Part shown: positions 6,653 through 56,219 of the stretch, piece by piece | Layout of the letters: each line of letters opens with the position of its first letter | Numbering within the stretch: position 1 is the first letter of the stretch | Assembly (NCBI GenBank): GCA_947504205.1 | Contig: CANNGL010000003.1 | Coordinates: forward strand, 682,001 to 746,000 | Source of the DNA: an uncultured Litoreibacter sp. | GTDB taxonomy: Bacteria; Pseudomonadota; Alphaproteobacteria; Rhodobacterales; Rhodobacteraceae | Reading direction: 5' to 3' | DNA length: 64,000 bases | The notes under the pieces: generated by a model | What the model was told of the DNA's origin: nothing | Databases searched by the model: none | Seen by the model: the letters and a program-made list of their open reading frames with translations, nothing else | Translations under genes and position numbers: made by a program

Positions 6653-7413
6653 GCGTCCAACCTCATGTTGAGGCCTGCTGCGGCCATATGGGCCTTCGCC
6701 TCGGCTATGGTGAAATCACCAAAATGGAAAATGGAGGCCGCCAGAACCGCATCGGCCCCGCCCTTGGTCACGCCTTCGACAAGGTGGTCGAGCGTGCCGA
6801 CGCCGCCTGAGGCAATAACCGGAACAGAAACGGTATCGGAGATGGCTCTGGTCAGCGGCAGATTGAAGCCCGCGCGGGTGCCGTCACGGTCCATAGAGGT
6901 CAAAAGAATTTCGCCTGCCCCCTTTGCAACAACCGTTTCAGCAAACTCGATTGCGTCGATACCCGTGGGTTTGCGTCCGCCGTGGGTGAAGATTTCCCAC
7001 TTGCCGGGGCTCGTCGTTTTGGCATCGATAGCGACAACGATGCATTGGGATCCAAACCGATCAGCCGCATCGCGCACCACATCCGGATCAGCGACAGCGG
7101 CAGAGTTGAAACTGACCTTGTCGGCCCCGGCCAGAAGCAGTTTGCGCACATCGTCATGTGTTCTAACGCCGCCGCCAACGGTCAGCGGGATGTAACATGC
7201 CTCAGCCGTTCGTGTGACGACGTCAAACATGGTGCCGCGGTTCTCATGGGTCGCGTTTATGTCGAGAAAGCAGAGTTCATCCGCGCCAGCCGCGTCATAG
7301 GCTTTTGCCGCCTCCACGGGATCGCCAGCGTCGATCAGGTCGACGAAATTGACGCCTTTGACAACGCGGCCGTCTTTCACGTCGAGACAAGGTATGATGC
7401 GCGTTTTCAACAT
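6649..7413 (-). CDS. hisF: imidazole glycerol phosphate synthase, cyclase subunit
   Basis: Cyclase half of imidazole glycerol phosphate synthase, which uses ammonia from HisH to close the imidazole ring and release AICAR. The 254-residue (beta/alpha)8 barrel shows the N-terminal catalytic Asp in [18 protein letters not shown] and the second Asp region in [14 protein letters not shown], with two phosphate-binding half-barrel repeats. It lies between the DUF302 gene on the opposite strand and hisE, which it overlaps. Confidence 0.97.
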
Positions 7414-7532
7414 AAGCGTTTGATCCTTTGGCGGCGGTTTAGCGCCATTCCGGCGTCGATGCCAGAGAAGTGACTGGAACCCGGGTGAACTTCGCGTGTT
7501 AATCTGAGTAATGAATTAGAGGAGACTTTACG

Positions 7533-7979
7533 ATGCGCCGACTGCTTCTTTCCGCGTTTGTTTTAATAGGATTTGCGATACCCGCCATGGCCACTGATCT
7601 GATTAAGGTTAAAACTGATAAATCTGTAGCTGAGGCGATGGATGCGCTGGAGGCGGCGGTCGGAAATGCCGGGGCCACTGTGTTCGCACGTATTGATCAT
7701 CGCAAAGGCGCTGAGAGTGCCGGTTTGGAGATGGACTTCGCGGAAACTCTGATCTTTGGAAACCCCAAACTTGGCACACCTGCGATGAATGCCGATATTC
7801 GCGCGTCGCTCTATCTTCCTCTGAAGGTTGCAGCTTACGCAGCACCTGAAGGTGGTGTTGTCCTGACATATGAGGACCCGGCGGAGATGTTTGACGATCT
7901 GGAAATCCCTGCAGATGCTGAATTCGTAGCCAAGATGCAGGGCGCTCTAAAGAAGCTGACAGAAGCGGCTGCGAATTAG
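7533..7979 (+). CDS. exported DUF302 domain protein
   Basis: Exported 148-residue protein with a signal peptide (MRRLLLSAFVLIGFAIPAMA) and one DUF302 domain: an alternating beta/alpha fold with HRKGAESAGLEM and the central IFGNPKLGTPAM motif, which is diagnostic of the family. The function of DUF302 is not established. AGAGGAG precedes the ATG at good spacing. It sits on the plus strand between hisF and the DUF2867 gene and ends two bases before that gene's stop. Confidence 0.9.
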   Translation: MRRLLLSAFVLIGFAIPAMATDLIKVKTDKSVAEAMDALEAAVGNAGATVFARIDHRKGAESAGLEMDFAETLIFGNPKLGTPAMNADIRASLYLPLKVAAYAAPEGGVVLTYEDPAEMFDDLEIPADAEFVAKMQGALKKLTEAAAN

Positions 7980-7981
7980 GT

Positions 7982-8461
7982 TCACGCTGCGATCTGGCCC
8001 GGGGTGGCGTCGGCCACACGGGCCAGAGCATTTCTGGCAATCAGAATGTGAAACGGCATGATGGCGGCCAGATAGGCGCGCCCGGCGATGTTGTGCGGGT
8101 GTACCCATGTCGCCAGCGAGACTTGACCATGCTCTGACAATACCGAAACCCGGAAATTCAGATGGCTGTCATCGAAACCGGCGATCAGCTCTTGCTCGGT
8201 TTCGCTTTCGACCGGAAAAATCCCAACGATGTCATCTGCTTCGGGGGGATCGTTGCGCAGCCCGAACGGTGTGGTCAAGAGGCGTCGCAAAGCGACAAGC
8301 CCCTGCGCCCAACCTGGGAAATCTGTTATGATTTCAGCGGCCTGTCGGGGTGGCAGATCCGATGCGACGGCATAGCAGTCAAGAAAATCGCCAGTCATCT
8401 TACGCGCGTGCAACGCGCTGGAGTTGGGAAGGTCAATGGCTCGAACGCGTGATAGGCGCAT
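7982..8461 (-). CDS. DUF2867 domain protein
   Basis: Cytosolic-looking protein of 159 residues belonging to the DUF2867 family. It shows the segment around FPGWAQGLVALRRLLTTPFG and the C-terminal HPHNIAGRAYLAAIMPFHIL with an aromatic turn. Function is unknown. It lies immediately downstream of hisA (four bases apart, same strand) and is probably co-transcribed with it, but nothing in it suggests a role in histidine synthesis. Confidence 0.85.
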   Translation of the reverse strand: MRLSRVRAIDLPNSSALHARKMTGDFLDCYAVASDLPPRQAAEIITDFPGWAQGLVALRRLLTTPFGLRNDPPEADDIVGIFPVESETEQELIAGFDDSHLNFRVSVLSEHGQVSLATWVHPHNIAGRAYLAAIMPFHILIARNALARVADATPGQIAA

Positions 8462-8465
8462 TGGA

Positions 8466-9188
8466 CTAGCTCCTGAGGGTTGTGAGGGCCTCGCTGAGAT
8501 CTATCGCCCCATCGTAGAGCGCACGTCCGGAAATGGCACCATCAAGCGGTGCGCCACAATCGCGCAGGGCGATCAGATCATCCAGCGATGACACGCCGCC
8601 AGAGGCGATCACCGGGATCGAAACCGCGTTTGCCAAAGCGGCCGTGGCCTCGATATTTGGGCCTTGCATCGCCCCGTCGCGATTGATGTCCGTGTAAATG
8701 ATTGCCGCAATGCCCGCGTCCTCGAATTGGCGCGCTAAGGCGGTGACTTCGACGTCGGTCTCTTCCGCCCAGCCTTTCGTGGCGACCATGCCGTTGCGCG
8801 CGTCGATGCCCACAGCCACATGTCCTGGAAAGCTTCGGGCGGCCTCGCGCACCAAATCCGGGTTTTCGACGGCAACCGTGCCAAGGATGACCCGTTCCAG
8901 ACCTTTGTCCAACCAGCCTTCGATGGTGGCCATATCGCGTATGCCACCACCTAGCTGGGCCGGTATTTTGGTGGCCTTGAGGATGGTTTCAACAGGAGCT
9001 GCATTTACCGGCTCACCTGCAAAAGCGCCATTGAGATCAACAAGATGCAGCCATTCGCACCCGGCCTCCACAAATGCCAGAGCTTGAGCCGCCGGGTCAT
9101 CATTGAAGACTGTCGCTTGCTCCATTTCGCCCTTGTACAAGCGAACGCATTGTCCGTCCTTGAGGTCGATTGCGGGGTAAAGGATCAT
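8466..9188 (-). CDS. hisA: phosphoribosylformimino-AICAR phosphate isomerase
   Basis: Isomerase of histidine biosynthesis converting ProFAR to PRFAR. I set the start at 9188 ([20 protein letters not shown]), giving 240 residues, the usual length; the track's start at 9362 adds 58 unrelated residues and overlaps the opposite gene. The barrel has the catalytic Asp in AIDLKDG and the second acid region in [15 protein letters not shown]. Part of the minus-strand his cluster with DUF2867 just downstream. Confidence 0.96.
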
Positions 9189-49292: not shown

Positions 49293-50171
49293 ATGCTGGA
49301 AAGTTTGCAACTTCGGAACGGGCGGTTGGATACCGAGCTTCAGTCGCAATATTGGCGCGACGGATTTTTGTTTCCGTTGCCCGCCATATCGTCCGATGCC
49401 GCGCTGCGCGCGCACAAAGAGTTGGAGGGTATCGAGCACGACTGGCTTGATAATGGCCTGCCATTGCCGCTCAACACCTATAAACGCATCAACGCGCATG
49501 TGGTGATGCCCATGGTTGCCCGCGTGGCTCGCGATCCGAGCATTCTCGATGTGGTCGAAGGAATCCTGGGTCCTGACATAATGATCTTTTCAGGCGAGTT
49601 CTTTATCAAGGAGCCGCATACAACGCAGATCGTCTCGATGCATCAGGACCTGACCTATTGGGGCCTTGGGGCGATTGATGGCCTCGTGACGGCATGGATT
49701 CCCCTGTCGCCAGCGACGCGTGCATCAGGGTGCATGGATTTTGTCGCGGGGTCCCACAAAAACGAGATACTTGAGCACGAGGACACGTTTGATGCCAACA
49801 ACCTGCTCAGCCGCGGCCAGGAAGTGCAGGTTGATGTGCGCCCCGAAGACAAGGTGGCCATCGAGATACATCCCGGACAGATGAGCCTTCACCACGGGCT
49901 GACGATCCATGGTTCGGGTCCGAATACATCGGATGATCGGCGCATAGCTCTGGTGATCCGTTATATTCGCCCCGATATGGCACAACAGGTGGGCGACAAG
50001 GATTATGCCATGCTGGTGCGCGGTGAAGACCGTTTTGGCAATTTCACCCATGTTCCCGCACCAGGAACCAATTTCAGTGCGGAGGCGCTGGCGCTTTACG
50101 AAGAGATCCGCGTGGGTCAGGCCAAAGTGATGATGAAAGGCGCGAAGAAAACCACGGAAATGTATGGCTGA
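49293..50171 (+). CDS. phytanoyl-CoA dioxygenase (PhyH) family Fe(II)/2-oxoglutarate oxygenase
   Basis: Cytosolic oxygenase of 292 residues in the PhyH family, which hydroxylates a substrate using iron, oxygen and 2-oxoglutarate. The iron-binding HxD is in IVSMHQDLTYWG, the distal His in MSLHHGLTIHGSGPN, and the 2-oxoglutarate Arg region in DDRRIALVIRYI. GGAGG lies seven bases before the ATG at 49293; the track start would add 47 low-quality residues. No substrate can be assigned from sequence. A HD-domain oxygenase-like gene lies 2.2 kb downstream, which recalls PhnY/PhnZ phosphonate degradation. Confidence 0.87.
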   Translation: MLESLQLRNGRLDTELQSQYWRDGFLFPLPAISSDAALRAHKELEGIEHDWLDNGLPLPLNTYKRINAHVVMPMVARVARDPSILDVVEGILGPDIMIFSGEFFIKEPHTTQIVSMHQDLTYWGLGAIDGLVTAWIPLSPATRASGCMDFVAGSHKNEILEHEDTFDANNLLSRGQEVQVDVRPEDKVAIEIHPGQMSLHHGLTIHGSGPNTSDDRRIALVIRYIRPDMAQQVGDKDYAMLVRGEDRFGNFTHVPAPGTNFSAEALALYEEIRVGQAKVMMKGAKKTTEMYG

Positions 50172-50177
50172 TACCCA

Positions 50178-50195
50178 AGCCTCGGCAGCGAGGCT
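50178..50195 (+). terminator. hairpin after PhyH gene
   Basis: AGCCTCG and CGAGGCT form a perfect seven-base stem with a gcag loop, six bases after the PhyH stop. Only three T residues follow shortly after, so termination would be weak or factor-dependent. Confidence 0.4.
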
Positions 50196-50389
50196 GCGGT
50201 TTGAATTGAGAATGCCGCGGCGGCGTGATACATTTGGATATCAACCACGGAGATTTTATGGCCCGTTAATGCGGGGACGGTCAGTATCCCTCCCCAGTGA
50301 ACACGTCGCTGAGACCGCTCTGATTGGCCTCAAGCATATGTCACATTTGGCGCAGACATCTGTCTCGCCGGACCATGAAAGATAACTCC

Positions 50390-51451
50390 ATGACACGGGA
50401 CTATTCCCAATTTCTACCTCCTGTCGAGGCTCAGCATTCCACAGCTGTGGCACGTCTGACGTCTCTCGGCTGGCAACCTTTCTTCGCGCAGCAAACCAGT
50501 ATTGACGAGCTGACATCCACGCCGCCCGCGCGCGTGGTCACCGTACATCGCTCCGGGCTTCATGTACTTGGCGAAGATATGGATGTGCACCTCCCTCCAT
50601 CGGTCGAAGCAACCGTTGGGGATTGGTTGCTGATCGATGCCGATCATCCGCACAAATCACGGCTGTTGGACCGCAAAAGTCTGATCAAGCGACGCGCGCC
50701 GGGCCATGATCGCTCGGAGCAATTGATTGCAGCGAATATTGATACCGCGTTTATCACCACCTCTTGCAATTCAGACTTCAACGTCGCGCGGCTCGAGCGC
50801 TATATAGCGTTGGCGTTCGAGGCAGAGGTGACGCCTGTGATCGTGATCACCAAATCCGACCTCGCGGATCCCGCACCCTATGTCGAAAAAGCCAGCGCGA
50901 TTTCTGCCGCGGTGCAGGTGATCGCCGTTGACGCGAAGTCCGGCAATCCGCGCGACAGGCTCGCGCCATGGTGCAAGCCAGGTCAAACCGTTGCATTTCT
51001 CGGCTCGTCTGGGGTGGGGAAATCCACATTGGTGAATGCCTTGTCGGGTCACACCGAGATTGCAACGCAGTCCATTCGCGAAGACGACGCCAAAGGCCGC
51101 CATACCACAACACGCCGTGCGCTTTTTGTCATTCCGGGCGGATGCGCCGTGCTCGATACACCCGGCATGCGCGAATTGCAGCTGAGCGATGTGGCCGATG
51201 GTGTGGCCGAGCTTTTCGAGGATCTTACCGAGTTGTCGCATCGTTGTAAGTTCAACGATTGCGCACATGACACCGAACCTGGATGCGCGATCAAGAAAGC
51301 ATTGGAGACAGGCGATGTTGATCTGGCCCGCGTAACCCGTTGGAAAAAGCTCATGGCCGAGGATGCTTATAACTCCGCCTCGCTTGCGGAGCGCCGTGCC
51401 AAGGACAAGGCCTTTGGGAAAATGGTGCGCGAGATCACGAAAGGCAAATAA
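50390..51451 (+). CDS. rsgA: small ribosomal subunit biogenesis GTPase
   Basis: Circularly permuted GTPase that helps 30S subunit maturation, about 353 residues. An OB-fold N-terminus precedes the G domain with motifs in permuted order: ITKSDLAD, GSSGVGKSTLVNAL, KGRHTTTRRALF and DTPGMRELQL. The zinc finger follows as CKFNDCAHDTEPGCAI. The start could be ATG 50390 (MTRDYSQF) or ATG 50375; neither has a strong ribosome site. Confidence 0.94.
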   Translation: MTRDYSQFLPPVEAQHSTAVARLTSLGWQPFFAQQTSIDELTSTPPARVVTVHRSGLHVLGEDMDVHLPPSVEATVGDWLLIDADHPHKSRLLDRKSLIKRRAPGHDRSEQLIAANIDTAFITTSCNSDFNVARLERYIALAFEAEVTPVIVITKSDLADPAPYVEKASAISAAVQVIAVDAKSGNPRDRLAPWCKPGQTVAFLGSSGVGKSTLVNALSGHTEIATQSIREDDAKGRHTTTRRALFVIPGGCAVLDTPGMRELQLSDVADGVAELFEDLTELSHRCKFNDCAHDTEPGCAIKKALETGDVDLARVTRWKKLMAEDAYNSASLAERRAKDKAFGKMVREITKGK

Positions 51452-51461
51452 TACCGAACCT

Positions 51462-51495
51462 GCGGGGGATTGATCTCAAATGGTCAAACCCCCGC
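51462..51495 (+). terminator. strong hairpin after rsgA
   Basis: GCGGGGG pairs with CCCCCGC; after an A-A mismatch TTGATC pairs with GGTCAA, giving 13 base pairs around a six-base loop. It begins ten bases after the rsgA stop. No T tract follows, so the terminator function is uncertain, but it clearly separates rsgA from the next gene. Confidence 0.5.
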
Positions 51496-51558
51496 CATGA
51501 TACGGCCCCGTTCAGGGGCGAATATCGGGTATTCACGGTGTATTCGGTAAGGGTCGGT

Positions 51559-52320
51559 ATGGAAATCACGCTCGAGCAACGCCCCCTGTTTGTGGAGGTC
51601 GGGCATCACATTGCACGCGCCATGTGGCAGACCATCGGGCGTTCCGATCCGACCTACGAGACCGAAATGTATGACATGGCCATGTCTGTCTTTGAGCATG
51701 GCTGCGGTCTGATGCAGGATCTTGGTGTGTTCGAATGTACGACACCGGGATCATACAAATTCACCATGCCGCTTGAAAAGGTGCGCGCCTATCTCACAAC
51801 TCTGGAGCCGCAGAGCACCTATACCTTCGATGAGATGATCGGCAACTTCATCTGGGCGTGTTCGGAACATCAAACAGATATCTCGACTGAAAAAGACCCG
51901 TTCGAAGTCCCCGGCTACATGCAGGAGGCGATGTGGGCCTTCGTATCGTTGGGCTACGCCACCCGCGAACCCGCAGGCTTTCAATGGACGCCGCGCATGG
52001 CAACGATCATGATCGCGGAATATCTTTGGTCGAATGAGGGAGATAGCTACGCCACATTGGACAAGCAGCGCGATCTGGAATTTGCCCATCAGATTTGGAA
52101 AGCCGTTCCGATCTGGCGGCGCCACCTTTTGGCACGCTGGATCAAGGGCAAGAGCGAGATGGACGTGTTTTTGTACCTGTTCCGACGCTGGGACGGCAAA
52201 CGCATCCACCTCAAGGAGATCCCTGCGGCGAAGCGTGGCATGCTGCCGTCCGGATATCAGGTTGCAACGCGCGAGGTCGCTCAGAAGCTGATCGATATCA
52301 GGCGCTCCCATCCCTTCTGA
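51559..52320 (+). CDS. hypothetical protein (253 aa), rich in Trp and Met
   Basis: Unrecognised soluble protein of 253 residues, predicted mostly helical, with no signal peptide or membrane helix. Distinct segments include HHIARAMWQTIGRSDPTY, MIGNFIWACSEHQTDIS and FLYLFRRWDGKRIHLKEIPA. Trp, Met and Tyr are frequent. AAGGG lies five bases before the ATG at 51559, whereas the track's GTG at 51538 adds seven residues. It lies 71 bases ahead of the HD-domain gene on the same strand and may be co-transcribed with it. Confidence 0.78.
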   Translation: MEITLEQRPLFVEVGHHIARAMWQTIGRSDPTYETEMYDMAMSVFEHGCGLMQDLGVFECTTPGSYKFTMPLEKVRAYLTTLEPQSTYTFDEMIGNFIWACSEHQTDISTEKDPFEVPGYMQEAMWAFVSLGYATREPAGFQWTPRMATIMIAEYLWSNEGDSYATLDKQRDLEFAHQIWKAVPIWRRHLLARWIKGKSEMDVFLYLFRRWDGKRIHLKEIPAAKRGMLPSGYQVATREVAQKLIDIRRSHPF

Positions 52321-52391
52321 CGTTAGTTTTCTCTGGCAAAATGCACGCTCCTTGGGCAGGATTTCGACGGAAGCTGCAGGGAAGATGGGAA

Positions 52392-53000
52392 ATGGATCAA
52401 GTCAAATTCACCGCCATGAAAGACGGCGACAAGGAAGACTATGATTTCCTCCATCCGCTGGAGGTCGAATATGCCTCCGGCACTGCAGATCGTTTGCTTA
52501 AAGCGCTGGTAACGCTGGACGAAAGCATGAGCGGCTATCAGGTGACGCGGCTTGAACACTCCACCCAAAGCGCCACACGGGCTTATCGGGATGGGGCTGA
52601 TATCGACTGGGTCGTCTCGGCCTTGCTGCACGATATCGGGGATATCTTCGCGCCCTATAACCACGACGAATACGCAGCGACCATCCTCAAACCCTTCGTG
52701 CGGGAGCAATGCACATGGGTCGTCGAAAAGCATGGCGACTTTCAGATGCTCTATTACGGCCATCATGTGGGCGGCAATCAGCATAAGCGCGATGCCTATC
52801 AGGGGCACCCGTATTTCGACGATTGTGCAGAGTTCTGCGAGCGTTGGGATCAAAGCAGCTTTGATCCGGATTACGACAGCAAGCCCATCGAATTTTTTGC
52901 GCCCATGGTGCACGAGGTTTTCGCTCGAACGCCCTATGATCCAAAGGTGACGCGCCCCGGACAGCGTGAACCTCTCACCCGCCCGTCTCAGCCTGCTTAG
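52392..53000 (+). CDS. HD-domain protein, PhnZ/MIOX-like candidate oxygenase
   Basis: Protein of 202 residues with an HD domain. Candidate metal ligands are His56 (VTRLEHSTQSAT), His80-Asp81 (ALLHDIGD), a His in VVEKHGDFQMLYYGHH and Asp153 (ERWDQSSFDPDY). The layout and size resemble the diiron HD oxygenases PhnZ and TmpB more than HD phosphohydrolases. From memory, PhnZ has a Tyr and Glu ahead of the first ligand His; here those positions are Met and Tyr, so a different substrate is likely. The ATG at 52392 follows GGGAAGATGGGA; the track's longer frame runs inside the preceding gene. Confidence 0.8.
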   Translation: MDQVKFTAMKDGDKEDYDFLHPLEVEYASGTADRLLKALVTLDESMSGYQVTRLEHSTQSATRAYRDGADIDWVVSALLHDIGDIFAPYNHDEYAATILKPFVREQCTWVVEKHGDFQMLYYGHHVGGNQHKRDAYQGHPYFDDCAEFCERWDQSSFDPDYDSKPIEFFAPMVHEVFARTPYDPKVTRPGQREPLTRPSQPA

Positions 53001-53117: not shown

Positions 53118-56100
53118 ATGACCTCGACGATGGCACTGGAAAAGACATTCAACGCGGCTGAAGCCGAAGACCGCCTCTACAAGGCTTGGGAAGACGCAGG
53201 TTGCTTCAAAGCGGGCGCGAATGCGTCGCGAACCGAGACCTATTCGATCATGATCCCGCCGCCCAATGTGACGGGTTCTCTGCATATGGGTCATGCCTTC
53301 AACAATACGTTGCAGGACATCCTGATCCGCTGGCACCGAATGCGCGGCTTCGACACGCTCTGGCAGCCCGGCACTGACCATGCAGGCATCGCCACACAGA
53401 TGGTGACCGAACGCGAAATGGCCGCCAATCAGGAACCGTCGCGCGCAGAGATGGGTCGCGAGGAGTTCGAAAAGCGCGTCTGGCAGCAGAAGATCAAATC
53501 GCGCGGCACCATCATCGGCCAACTCAAGCGTCTTGGCGCGTCTTGCGACTGGTCTCGCGAAGCCTTCACCATGTCCGGCGCGCCGTCAGCGCCCGAAGGC
53601 GAAGAGGGCAACTTCCACGATGCCGTCATCAAGGTCTTTGTGGAGATGTACAACAAGGGTCTGATCTATCGCGGCAAGCGACTGGTCAATTGGGATCCGC
53701 ATTTCGAGACGGCCATTTCCGACCTTGAGGTCGAGAATATCGAGGTCGCAGGCCATATGTGGCACTTCAAGTATCCGCTCGCGGGTGGTGCGACCTACGA
53801 ATATGTCGAAAAGGACGAGGACGGGAATATCACGCTGAAAGAGCAGCGGGATTATATTTCCATCGCCACGACCCGGCCCGAAACCATGCTGGGCGACGGG
53901 GCCGTTGCCGTGCATCCCGATGATGAACGCTACGCGCCTATCGTTGGCAAGCTTTGCGAAATACCGGTTGGCCCGAAAGAGCACCGCCGCCTGATCCCGA
54001 TCATCACCGATCAGTATCCCGACCCCGACTTCGGCTCCGGCGCTGTGAAGATCACCGGCGCGCACGACTTTAACGACTACGAGGTCGCCAAGCGTGGCGG
54101 TATCCCGATGTATCGCCTGATGGACACGAAAGGTGCGATGCGCGCCGACGGTGCACCCTATGCGGAGATGGCAGACGTTGCCATGGCTGTTGCCAAGGGT
54201 GAGCGGGAGTTGAGCGAGGCCGAGGCCGACACGATCAACCTCGTCCCCGATGATTTGCGCGGGCTTGACCGATTCGAGGCGCGCAAGAAGGTGGTCGAGC
54301 AGATCACCTCCGAGGGTCTGGCCGTCATGGTCTCCGTTCCGGTCATCGATCCGGAAGACGGGCAGGAAAGCGCCCGCCTTGATCCTTTCGTTGAAAACAA
54401 ACCGATCATGCAGCCCTTTGGCGACCGCTCGAAGGTCGTGATTGAGCCGATGCTGACCGATCAGTGGTTCGTCGACACGGACCAGATCGTCGGCCCCGCG
54501 CTCGACGCAGTCAAAGATGGCACCGTCAAGATCCTGCCCGAGAGCGGGGAGAAGACCTATTACCACTGGCTGGAAAACATCGAGCCTTGGTGCATCTCCC
54601 GCCAGCTCTGGTGGGGGCATCAGATTCCGGTTTGGTATGGGCCTAAAATTTTGGATTCATCCAAACCCCATGGGGATTCAGCGCGTTATATTCAGAAGTC
54701 AAAACAAGCGGATGGCATCACGCTGCTTCATCAGGAGATCGAAGTATTTTGCGCTGCTAATGAGGACGATCTCCAGATCATCGCCAATGAGTATTATGGC
54801 ACTGATATTGTAATCGGAAACAAAGAAGAGATTTTTGCTCTTCCTGAGGTAGCCAATGCACCGACAAAGTTTATGGAAGGCGTCCAGCTTGGTGGGCCAA
54901 TCGCCCTCTATCGCGACCCCGACGTTCTCGACACATGGTTCTCCTCAGGCCTTTGGCCGATCGGCACGCTTGGCTGGCCCGAGCAAACCGAAGAACTCCA
55001 GAAATACTTCCCGACCTCCACGCTCGTCACCGGGCAGGACATTCTGTTCTTCTGGGTCGCCCGCATGATGATGATGCAATATGCCGTCGTCGGTGAACGG
55101 CCGTTCGATACCGTCTACCTCCACGGCCTCGTCCGCGACGCCAAAGGCAAGAAGATGTCGAAATCCACCGGCAACGTCATCGACCCGCTGGAGATCATCG
55201 ACGAATACGGCGCAGACGCCCTGCGGTTCTCGTCCGCAGCGATGGCGGCTCTTGGTGGCGTGCTGAAACTCGATATGGAGCGGATCAAAGGCTACCGGAA
55301 TTTCGGCACGAAGCTCTGGAACGCTGTCCGCTTCGCCGAGATGAACGAGGTTTACGCCAGTGCGCCGCCCACGGACACACCGGTTGCGCAGCAAACCGTG
55401 AACCGCTGGATCTTGGGCGAGACGGCGAAGGTGCGCGAAGTGGTCGATCAGGCGATGGACGCACATCGGTTCAACGATGCGGCCAATGCGCTCTACGCCT
55501 TTGTCTGGGGCAAGGTTTGTGATTGGTATGTCGAGTTTTCCAAGCCGCTGCTGATGGATGGCGCAGACGATGTGAAGCAGGAAACCCGCGCGACGATGGC
55601 ATGGGTGCTGGACCAATGCATGGTCCTGCTGCATCCGATCATGCCCTTCATCACCGAAGAACTGTGGCAGGTCACCGCCACCCGCGACAAGATGCTGGTA
55701 CATGCGGATTGGCCAACCTACGGCGCGGAGCTTGTCGAAGACGCCGCCGACCGCGAGATGAACTGGGTCATTTACCTGATCGAGGCCGTTCGCTCTGCGC
55801 GCGGCGAAATGCATGTGCCCGCCGGGTTGAAGGTGCCTTTGGTTCAGGTCGATCTCGATGACGCTGGCAAGGCGGCGTTCAAAGCGAACGAGGCGTTGAT
55901 CCTGAAGCTTGCCCGGATTGACTCTGTGTCAGAAGGCGAAGCGCCCAAAGGGTCGGTTTCGATTCCGGTTCCGGGTGGAAGCTTTGCCCTGCCATTGGCC
56001 GGGATCATCGATATCGACGAAGAAAAAGCCCGTCTGGAAAAGACCCTTGGGAAACTTGCCAAAGAGCTTGGTGGTCTGCGCGGCCGCCTCAACAATCCGA

Positions 56101-56219
56101 AATTCGTCGAAAGCGCACCTGCGGATGTGGTAGAAGAGGCCAAGGCCAATCTTGCCGCCCGCGAATCCGAAGAAGCGAAGATCGTGGCGGCTCTGGAGCG
56201 ACTGAAAGAGGTTTCATGA
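53118..56219 (+). CDS. valS: valyl-tRNA synthetase
   Basis: Class I aminoacyl-tRNA synthetase of 1033 residues. The HIGH motif is [20 protein letters not shown] is [11 protein letters not shown], and the catalytic [11 protein letters not shown] and [10 protein letters not shown] are present; the editing domain spans roughly residues 190-400, and a C-terminal coiled coil closes the protein. Between WYGP (about residue 507) and DPDVLDTWF (about 600) there is an unusually long, AT-richer insertion. ATG 53118 directly follows AAAGG; ATG 53130 (MALEKTF) is an alternative with better spacing. It overlaps the next gene by four bases. Confidence 0.96.

What the first reader, a model, noticed from the sequence alone, without database searches (positions are those of the whole stretch)
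49293..53000. PhyH-type 2OG oxygenase and PhnZ/MIOX-like HD protein in one short region
Seen: a PhyH-family oxygenase (HxD in MHQD) and, 2.2 kb downstream on the same strand, a 202-residue HD protein with a set of possible diiron ligands. Known: PhnY/PhnZ and TmpA/TmpB are 2OG-oxygenase plus HD-oxygenase pairs that hydroxylate and then cleave organophosphonates, TmpAB being from a roseobacter. Inference: this could be a related two-step oxidative pathway for a different substrate, because the Tyr/Glu residues I remember ahead of the first HD ligand in PhnZ are Met/Tyr here. rsgA and an unknown gene lie in between, so linkage is loose, and no phosphonate transporter is present.
Basis: partly seen in the sequence, partly recalled or inferred. 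Interest (0 to 1): 0.65.

Follow-up and report, generated by a model that had tools for sequence, protein, structure and literature searches.

The report
Oxygenase pair tied to carnitine breakdown
Two marine bacterial genes that usually overlap as a tight pair look like a hydroxylase plus an iron oxygenase working on carnitine-like nutrients, a cousin of a known phosphonate-degrading pair that seems to cut a different kind of bond.

Summary
In detail: a PhyH oxygenase (49293-50171) and a 202-aa HD protein (52392-53000), with rsgA and an orphan gene between. The loose linkage is peculiar to this genome. In 41 other loci the genes are adjacent on one strand, 34 of them overlapping by 1-7 bp. In 296 Rhodobacterales genomes 51 of 54 PhyH genomes have the HD gene. 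The HD model matches only PhnZ and TmpB structures. All six diiron ligands are kept in 144-145 of 145 relatives, but the PhnZ/TmpB substrate residues are replaced: YxxE Tyr by Leu/Met, Glu by Tyr, His62 by Asp, Lys108 by Gln. The genome carries a separate, genuine TmpAB locus, so this is not the phosphonate pathway. The same HD sits inside a carnitine/gamma-butyrobetaine operon in Mesorhizobium, Tabrizicola and others, and elsewhere pairs with a TmpA/gamma-butyrobetaine-hydroxylase-like enzyme beside choline or betaine genes. Carnitine dehydrogenase is present in 100 of 101 HD genomes. Best reading: a 2OG-oxygenase plus diiron-HD module in quaternary-amine catabolism, probably cleaving a C-C bond next to an installed hydroxyl and feeding glycine betaine. 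Exact substrate and catalysis are untested.

The parts
49293..50171 (+). PhyH-family Fe(II)/2-oxoglutarate oxygenase, 292 aa; putative hydroxylase of the pair
   Evidence: PF05721 6e-25; HxD/H/R motif invariant in relatives; closest solved structure ThoJ, 6zyk/6zyl
52392..53000 (+). HD-domain protein, 202 aa; putative diiron oxygenase of a clade separate from PhnZ/TmpB
   Evidence: fold match only to PhnZ/TmpB; ligands H56 H80 D81 H91 H114 D153 conserved in 144-145 of 145
50390..51451 (+). rsgA (small-subunit-dependent GTPase A), lying between the pair in this genome; not part of the module
   Evidence: TIGR00157 140 bits, cut-off 100; not between the two genes in any of the 41 linked relatives
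51559..52320 (+). orphan ORF, 253 aa, between rsgA and the HD gene; not part of the module
   Evidence: no Pfam, NCBIfam or significant PDB hit; not found in 10 other genomes of the genus
53118..56219 (+). valS; conserved downstream flank of the HD gene in many Rhodobacterales (site marker, not part of the module)
   Evidence: gene maps

Best explanation
The two genes are a hydroxylase-oxygenase module of quaternary-ammonium (carnitine-type) catabolism. Shown: they form a conserved, usually overlapping gene pair. The HD protein keeps the fold and all six diiron ligands of PhnZ/TmpB but has a different, almost invariant substrate set. The same HD subfamily sits in carnitine, gamma-butyrobetaine, choline and betaine gene clusters of unrelated bacteria. 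Inferred: PhyH (or, elsewhere, a TmpA/gamma-butyrobetaine-hydroxylase-like enzyme, or the CoA-dependent hydration steps of the carnitine operon) puts a hydroxyl on a trimethylammonium compound. The HD diiron site then binds that hydroxyl and, with O2, cleaves the adjacent C-C bond as PhnZ/TmpB cleave C-P. That would turn (CH3)3N+-CH2-CH(OH)-X, with X a carbon group instead of phosphonate, into glycine betaine, which the neighbouring betaine and sarcosine genes would consume.
For: Pair: 41 linked loci, 34 overlapping 1-7 bp; Mantel r 0.88 between HD and PhyH distances in 40 pairs; 51 of 54 PhyH genomes have HD. Active site: six ligands in 144-145 of 145; E27->Y 143/145, H62->D and K108->Q 145/145. 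Fold: only PhnZ/TmpB at E<=0.001. Not TmpAB: the genome has a true TmpA (576 bits, cut-off 400) and TmpB (354, cut-off 300) elsewhere. Context: BKACE-HD-carnitine 3-dehydrogenase-ACAD-CoA ligase-CaiD-like operon in 28 loci; sister genomes G099 (HD inside that operon, no PhyH) and G106 (operon without HD; HD paired with PhyH); TmpA-like + HD + choline ABC protein + choline dehydrogenase on a Pseudomonas plasmid; TmpA-like + HD next to GbdR-like/BKACE/carnitine dehydrogenase (G588) and near GbcA-like/sarcosine-oxidase-like genes (G437); BCCT + TmpA-like + HD in a Lysobacterales MAG; soxB and GbdR-like near HD in G311; carnitine dehydrogenase in 100 of 101 HD genomes vs 125 of 195 others.
Against: No activity, metal or substrate data. 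Neighbourhood is indirect evidence. Many HD homologues at 40-50% identity have no quaternary-amine neighbours. HD occurs without PhyH in about half of Rhodobacterales HD genomes and in most carnitine-operon genomes tested, so the hydroxylation step is not always by PhyH. Genomes with HD already have the normal carnitine route, so a second route needs a reason. Co-occurrence statistics are not corrected for phylogeny, and within the valS-site loci HD and PhyH distances correlate no better with each other than with ValS.
Confidence: 0.5

Rival explanations
1. Entry-step variant: the module shortens a longer betaine into the carnitine pathway. Examples are 3-hydroxy-trimethyllysine cleaved to gamma-butyrobetaine plus glyoxylate and ammonia, or alpha-hydroxylation and oxidative decarboxylation of delta-valerobetaine to gamma-butyrobetaine or of beta-alanine betaine to glycine betaine.
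For: Explains why HD almost never occurs without carnitine dehydrogenase (100 of 101) although the own genome already has the CoA route (CaiD-like). PhyH is classically an alpha-hydroxylase of carboxylic acids (family knowledge). A TmpA-like enzyme with a non-phosphonate HD would suit a carboxylate analogue of TmpA's substrate. Clusters with choline-dehydrogenase-like and aldehyde-dehydrogenase genes suit homocholine.
Against: Carnitine-operon HDs mostly have no PhyH in the genome, and G099 and G607 have neither PhyH nor a gamma-butyrobetaine-hydroxylase-like gene.
Confidence: 0.25
2. Salvage: HD removes a damaged by-product of carnitine oxidation, such as trimethylaminoacetone formed when 3-dehydrocarnitine loses CO2, after hydroxylation by PhyH or reduction.
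For: HD lies exactly between the enzyme that makes 3-dehydrocarnitine and the one that uses it (BKACE-HD-LcdH) and depends on their presence.
Against: Does not explain pairing with TmpA-like enzymes in clusters without carnitine dehydrogenase. The instability of dehydrocarnitine is from memory.
Confidence: 0.08
3. HD is not an oxygenase but a metal-dependent hydrolase or hydratase in the same quaternary-amine pathways, as most HD-domain proteins are hydrolases.
For: The HD superfamily is mostly hydrolytic (PMC8177086); one public record calls a relative a phosphohydrolase; the YxxE lid is missing.
Against: Nearest solved folds are only the oxygenases PhnZ and TmpB, not hydrolases; recurrent pairing with two unrelated 2OG oxygenase families mirrors PhnY/PhnZ and TmpA/TmpB; MIOX also lacks YxxE yet is an oxygenase.
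Confidence: 0.12
4. A phosphonate pathway like PhnY/PhnZ or TmpA/TmpB.
For: Same fold, same two-step gene logic; one partner (G588) passes the TmpA model cut-off (423 vs 400).
Against: Substrate residues replaced in all 145 relatives; true TmpAB present elsewhere in the genome; no phosphonate genes recognised near the examined copies; NCBIfam phosphonate HD models missed by wide margins.
Confidence: 0.04

Closest known systems
TmpA/TmpB (2-trimethylaminoethylphosphonate pathway, Leisingera caerulea)
   Same: 2OG oxygenase gene followed by HD diiron-type oxygenase gene; same HD fold and metal ligands; trimethylammonium context
   Different: HD lacks YxxE and the His and Lys of the substrate site; PhyH is not of the TauD/TmpA family; no phosphonate genes; the same genome has a separate true TmpAB
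PhnY*/PhnZ (2-aminoethylphosphonate pathway)
   Same: Two-step hydroxylase plus HD oxygenase logic; PhnZ is the best fold match (TM 0.61-0.63)
   Different: 22% identity; phosphonate-site residues replaced in all 145 relatives; context is carnitine/betaine
myo-inositol oxygenase (MIOX)
   Same: H...HD...H...H...D diiron oxygenase, no YxxE lid, cleaves C-C
   Different: Pfam MIOX below cut-off (22.2 vs 25 bits); no inositol genes seen; a public record nevertheless calls one copy inositol oxygenase family protein
Carnitine catabolic operon (GbdR/CdhR-like, BKACE, carnitine 3-dehydrogenase)
   Same: HD lies inside it in Mesorhizobium, Tabrizicola, Hoeflea and G099
   Different: The known steps need no HD oxygenase; in the window genome HD is about 27-29 kb away from BKACE and carnitine dehydrogenase
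ThoJ (thioholgamide beta-hydroxylase)
   Same: Closest solved structure to the PhyH protein, about 30% identity
   Different: RiPP tailoring enzyme (from memory); the PhyH here is paired with an HD gene instead

Membership tests
[quoted passage not shown]
   144-145 of 145 relatives
[quoted passage not shown]
   AlphaFold pLDDT 93.5; all 10 PDB matches with E<=0.001 are PhnZ or TmpB, TM 0.55-0.63
[quoted passage not shown]
   needs protein, EPR/Moessbauer and assays
PhnZ/TmpB phosphonate HD oxygenases | YxxE lid | tested here: not met
   Tyr position Leu in 129 of 145 (Met in the window), Glu position Tyr in 143 of 145; lid described in PMC8177086
PhnZ/TmpB phosphonate HD oxygenases | His62 and Lys108 at the substrate phosphonate (role from memory) | tested here: not met
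   Asp and Gln in 145 of 145; the genome's own TmpB keeps His and Lys
PhnZ/TmpB phosphonate HD oxygenases | Score above NCBIfam TIGR03276 / NF049941 / NF052439 cut-offs | tested here: not met
   34/29/26 bits vs 215/300/300; positive control TmpB 354
Two-step 2OG oxygenase + HD oxygenase modules | Adjacent, co-occurring 2OG oxygenase and HD genes | tested here: met
   41 linked loci, 34 overlapping; 51 of 54 PhyH genomes with HD
PhyH 2OG oxygenases | PF05721 above cut-off, HxD...H and 2OG Arg | tested here: met
   89 bits vs 22; invariant motif
MIOX | PF05153 above cut-off | tested here: not met
   22.2 vs 25 bits
Quaternary-amine (carnitine/betaine) catabolism genes | Location in or beside carnitine, choline or betaine gene clusters | tested here: met
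   carnitine operon in 28 loci and several other contexts; not for most homologues under 50% identity

The most novel reading that the evidence does not exclude
A widespread, undescribed family of HD diiron oxygenases that cleaves C-C rather than C-P bonds of hydroxylated trimethylammonium compounds, paired with whichever hydroxylase is at hand (PhyH, or a TmpA/gamma-butyrobetaine-hydroxylase-like enzyme). It would be an O2-dependent route into glycine betaine in marine and soil bacteria, parallel to the dehydrogenase/BKACE route.
Probability: 0.35. Interest if true: 0.8.

Novelty: new variant of a known kind. Interest (0 to 1): 0.62.

Why it matters
All 2OG-plus-HD oxygenase pairs described in the literature that could be read act on phosphonates (four versions listed in PMC10574752). 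A pair for quaternary amines would extend this logic to carbon substrates, link a family now annotated as phosphohydrolase, HD domain or inositol oxygenase to carnitine metabolism, and give a ready set of assays. It also bears on marine phosphorus ecology: published phnZ abundances disagree widely (about 7-20% against under 1% of cells, PMC10574752), and non-phosphonate HD relatives with six identical metal ligands could inflate the high counts (inference).

Tried and rejected
Phosphonate function: rejected by residues, model scores and the separate TmpAB locus. MIOX membership: below cut-off. Chance neighbours: rejected by 41 adjacent pairs. PhyH as a halogenase: rejected, HxD present. PhyH needed as the only gamma-butyrobetaine hydroxylase of this genome: unlikely, a CaiD-like gene is present. 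HD as a missing betainyl-CoA thioesterase: unlikely, operons with the longer dehydrogenase (484-485 aa, the length of the fused dehydrogenase-thioesterase model) also have HD. Laying the whole genome in the Python box was not available. Papers on PhnZ, TmpB and Sinorhizobium carnitine metabolism were not held, so published work on the carnitine operon could not be checked. No paper in the library holds carnitine, HD domain and butyrobetaine together, or phytanoyl-CoA dioxygenase, HD domain, operon and oxygenase together. The automatic gene caller failed on L238/L285 (G648), whose context was left out. The co-divergence test against ValS gave only a weak partial correlation (0.27, 18 loci).
Full report
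1. What is there. The window holds a PhyH-type 2OG oxygenase at 49293-50171 (+, 292 aa; PF05721 6e-25) and a 202-aa HD protein at 52392-53000 (+). Between them lie rsgA and an orphan ORF (51559-52320) with no Pfam, NCBIfam or significant PDB relative, which is absent from ten other genomes of the genus. The PhyH start at 49293 and the HD start at 52392 agree with relatives. The PhyH protein keeps the hydroxylase facial triad H117-x-D119/H206 and the 2OG arginine. Its model (pLDDT 85.7) is closest to ThoJ, TM 0.81.

2. The pair is real and the gap is local. In 296 Rhodobacterales genomes HD relatives occur in 101 and PhyH relatives (E<=1e-50) in 54. 51 of the 54 also have HD (Fisher 3.5e-25, not corrected for phylogeny), and 37 are linked. 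Thirty-six of those lie within 57 bp between match edges, and only the window pair is 2.2 kb apart. In 41 linked loci from two sources the coding regions overlap by 1-7 bp in 34, the pattern of translational coupling. The pair is kept in two HD subgroups that differ by about 43% and sit at different chromosomal sites. HD and PhyH distances correlate at r 0.88 over 40 pairs, but within the 18 valS-site loci the partial correlation given ValS is only 0.27, so fine co-divergence is not shown. The PhyH label needs 26 changes on the HD tree, which suggests repeated loss. At the valS site one finds pair, HD only or PhyH only.

3. What the HD protein is. The AlphaFold model (pLDDT 93.5) has ten PDB matches at E<=0.001, all PhnZ or TmpB. 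A profile of the family without any TmpB row also finds only PhnZ and TmpB. The six diiron ligands H56, H80, D81, H91, H114 and D153 are conserved in 144-145 of 145 relatives. The positions that define the phosphonate enzymes are not: PhnZ Tyr24 is Leu (129), E27 is Tyr (143), His62 is Asp (145), Lys108 is Gln (145). R53 and R133 are invariant. The YxxE lid of PhnZ and TmpB is described in PMC8177086, which also notes that MIOX lacks it; the role of His62 and Lys108 is from memory. Replacement of Glu by Tyr would suit a trimethylammonium group (inference).

4. It is not the phosphonate pathway of this organism. The same genome has a complete TmpA-TmpB locus with ABC and BCCT transporters elsewhere. 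TmpA scores 576 bits (cut-off 400) and TmpB 354 (cut-off 300), while the window HD scores 29 on the TmpB model.

5. Where relatives sit. In Mesorhizobium, Tabrizicola, Hoeflea and others, HD proteins 70-76% identical to the window's lie in an operon of a GbdR-like regulator, BKACE, HD, carnitine 3-dehydrogenase (595 bits, cut-off 592), acyl-CoA dehydrogenase, CoA ligase and crotonobetainyl-CoA-hydratase-like protein. These 28 HDs form one clade (95% SH-aLRT) inside the PhyH-linked subgroup, so one move into the carnitine operon is the simplest account. Two species of one genus illustrate it: G099 has HD inside the carnitine operon and no PhyH; G106 has the operon without HD, and its HD is paired with PhyH elsewhere.

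6. Other contexts. A Pseudomonas plasmid carries a TmpA-like oxygenase (347 bits) directly before HD (52% identical), followed by a choline ABC binding protein (458, cut-off 379), choline dehydrogenase (756, cut-off 605) and a betaine-aldehyde-dehydrogenase-like protein. G588 has a TmpA-like oxygenase (423, cut-off 400), HD and a choline-binding-like protein divergent from a GbdR-like regulator, BKACE, carnitine dehydrogenase and thioesterase. G437 has TmpA-like plus HD near GbcA-like and sarcosine-oxidase-like genes. A Lysobacterales MAG has a BCCT transporter, class II aldolase, TmpA-like and HD (68%). G311 has HD near GbdR-like and soxB. Rhizobium CB3060 and Mesorhizobium have amidohydrolase-Rieske-HD, in Rhizobium followed by choline-dehydrogenase-like, choline-binding and aldehyde dehydrogenase genes. 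Each is a separate neighbourhood; together they point to quaternary amines.

7. Genome-level association. Carnitine dehydrogenase is found in 100 of 101 HD genomes against 125 of 195 others (not phylogeny-corrected). In the window's own genome BKACE and carnitine dehydrogenase (782 bits, cut-off 592) lie about 27-29 kb downstream of HD, and a CaiD-like gene is on the same contig.

8. Mechanism, marked by status. Shown: gene pair, predicted fold, ligands, substrate-site change, genomic context. Inferred: diiron oxygenase chemistry; hydroxylation by PhyH; C-C cleavage. The common denominator of the contexts is an enzyme that adds a hydroxyl to a trimethylammonium compound (PhyH, TmpA-like, or the CoA-dependent hydration route) followed by HD. 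TmpB turns (CH3)3N+-CH2-CH(OH)-PO3 into glycine betaine and Pi (PMC10574752). The simplest extrapolation is the same cleavage with a carbon group in place of phosphorus. Close alternatives are entry steps from trimethyllysine, delta-valerobetaine or beta-alanine betaine, and salvage of a dehydrocarnitine breakdown product.

9. Limits. No assay exists. Homologues at 40-50% identity mostly lack quaternary-amine neighbours, so the inference is restricted to the closer subfamily and its TmpA-paired sisters. HD-only genomes show that the two genes are not strictly interdependent. Key papers were not readable here, so prior description of the HD gene in rhizobial carnitine operons cannot be excluded; no paper in the library holds the terms carnitine, HD domain and butyrobetaine together.

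10. Verdict. A sound observation and a sound first interpretation, improved by the finding that the pair is normally overlapping, is not for phosphonates, and belongs with carnitine and betaine catabolism. New variant of a known kind.

Noticed in passing
L004 (G000:C1:194000-211000), 7085-8886: Complete TmpA-TmpB locus with an upstream ABC transporter and a downstream BCCT transporter in the window's own genome
   Followed up: yes
window 51559-52320: 253-aa ORF with no Pfam, NCBIfam or significant PDB relative and no match in ten other genomes of the genus; with rsgA it separates the normally overlapping pair
   Followed up: partly
L198 (Phaeobacter inhibens plasmid pDOK1-1-2) 7001-7624: A plasmid copy of the HD gene, annotated inositol oxygenase family protein, beside LysR, a sterol-desaturase-like protein and a protein annotated 3-methyl-2-oxobutanoate hydroxymethyltransferase, with IS3 transposase genes within 7 kb on both sides
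   Followed up: no
L200, L202, L205, L252, L267, L269: More distant HD relatives (39-49% identity) recur near a class II aldolase/adducin-family gene, perhaps another functional partner
   Followed up: no
L128, L141, L157, L207, L261: Amidohydrolase and Rieske-ferredoxin genes directly before the HD gene; the Rieske protein could be an electron donor
   Followed up: partly
L092-L097, L116, L117: A third HD subgroup (43-47% identity) in Rhodobacterales, several copies with a divergent LysR gene; in one genus it coexists with a PhyH-only valS site on another contig
   Followed up: partly
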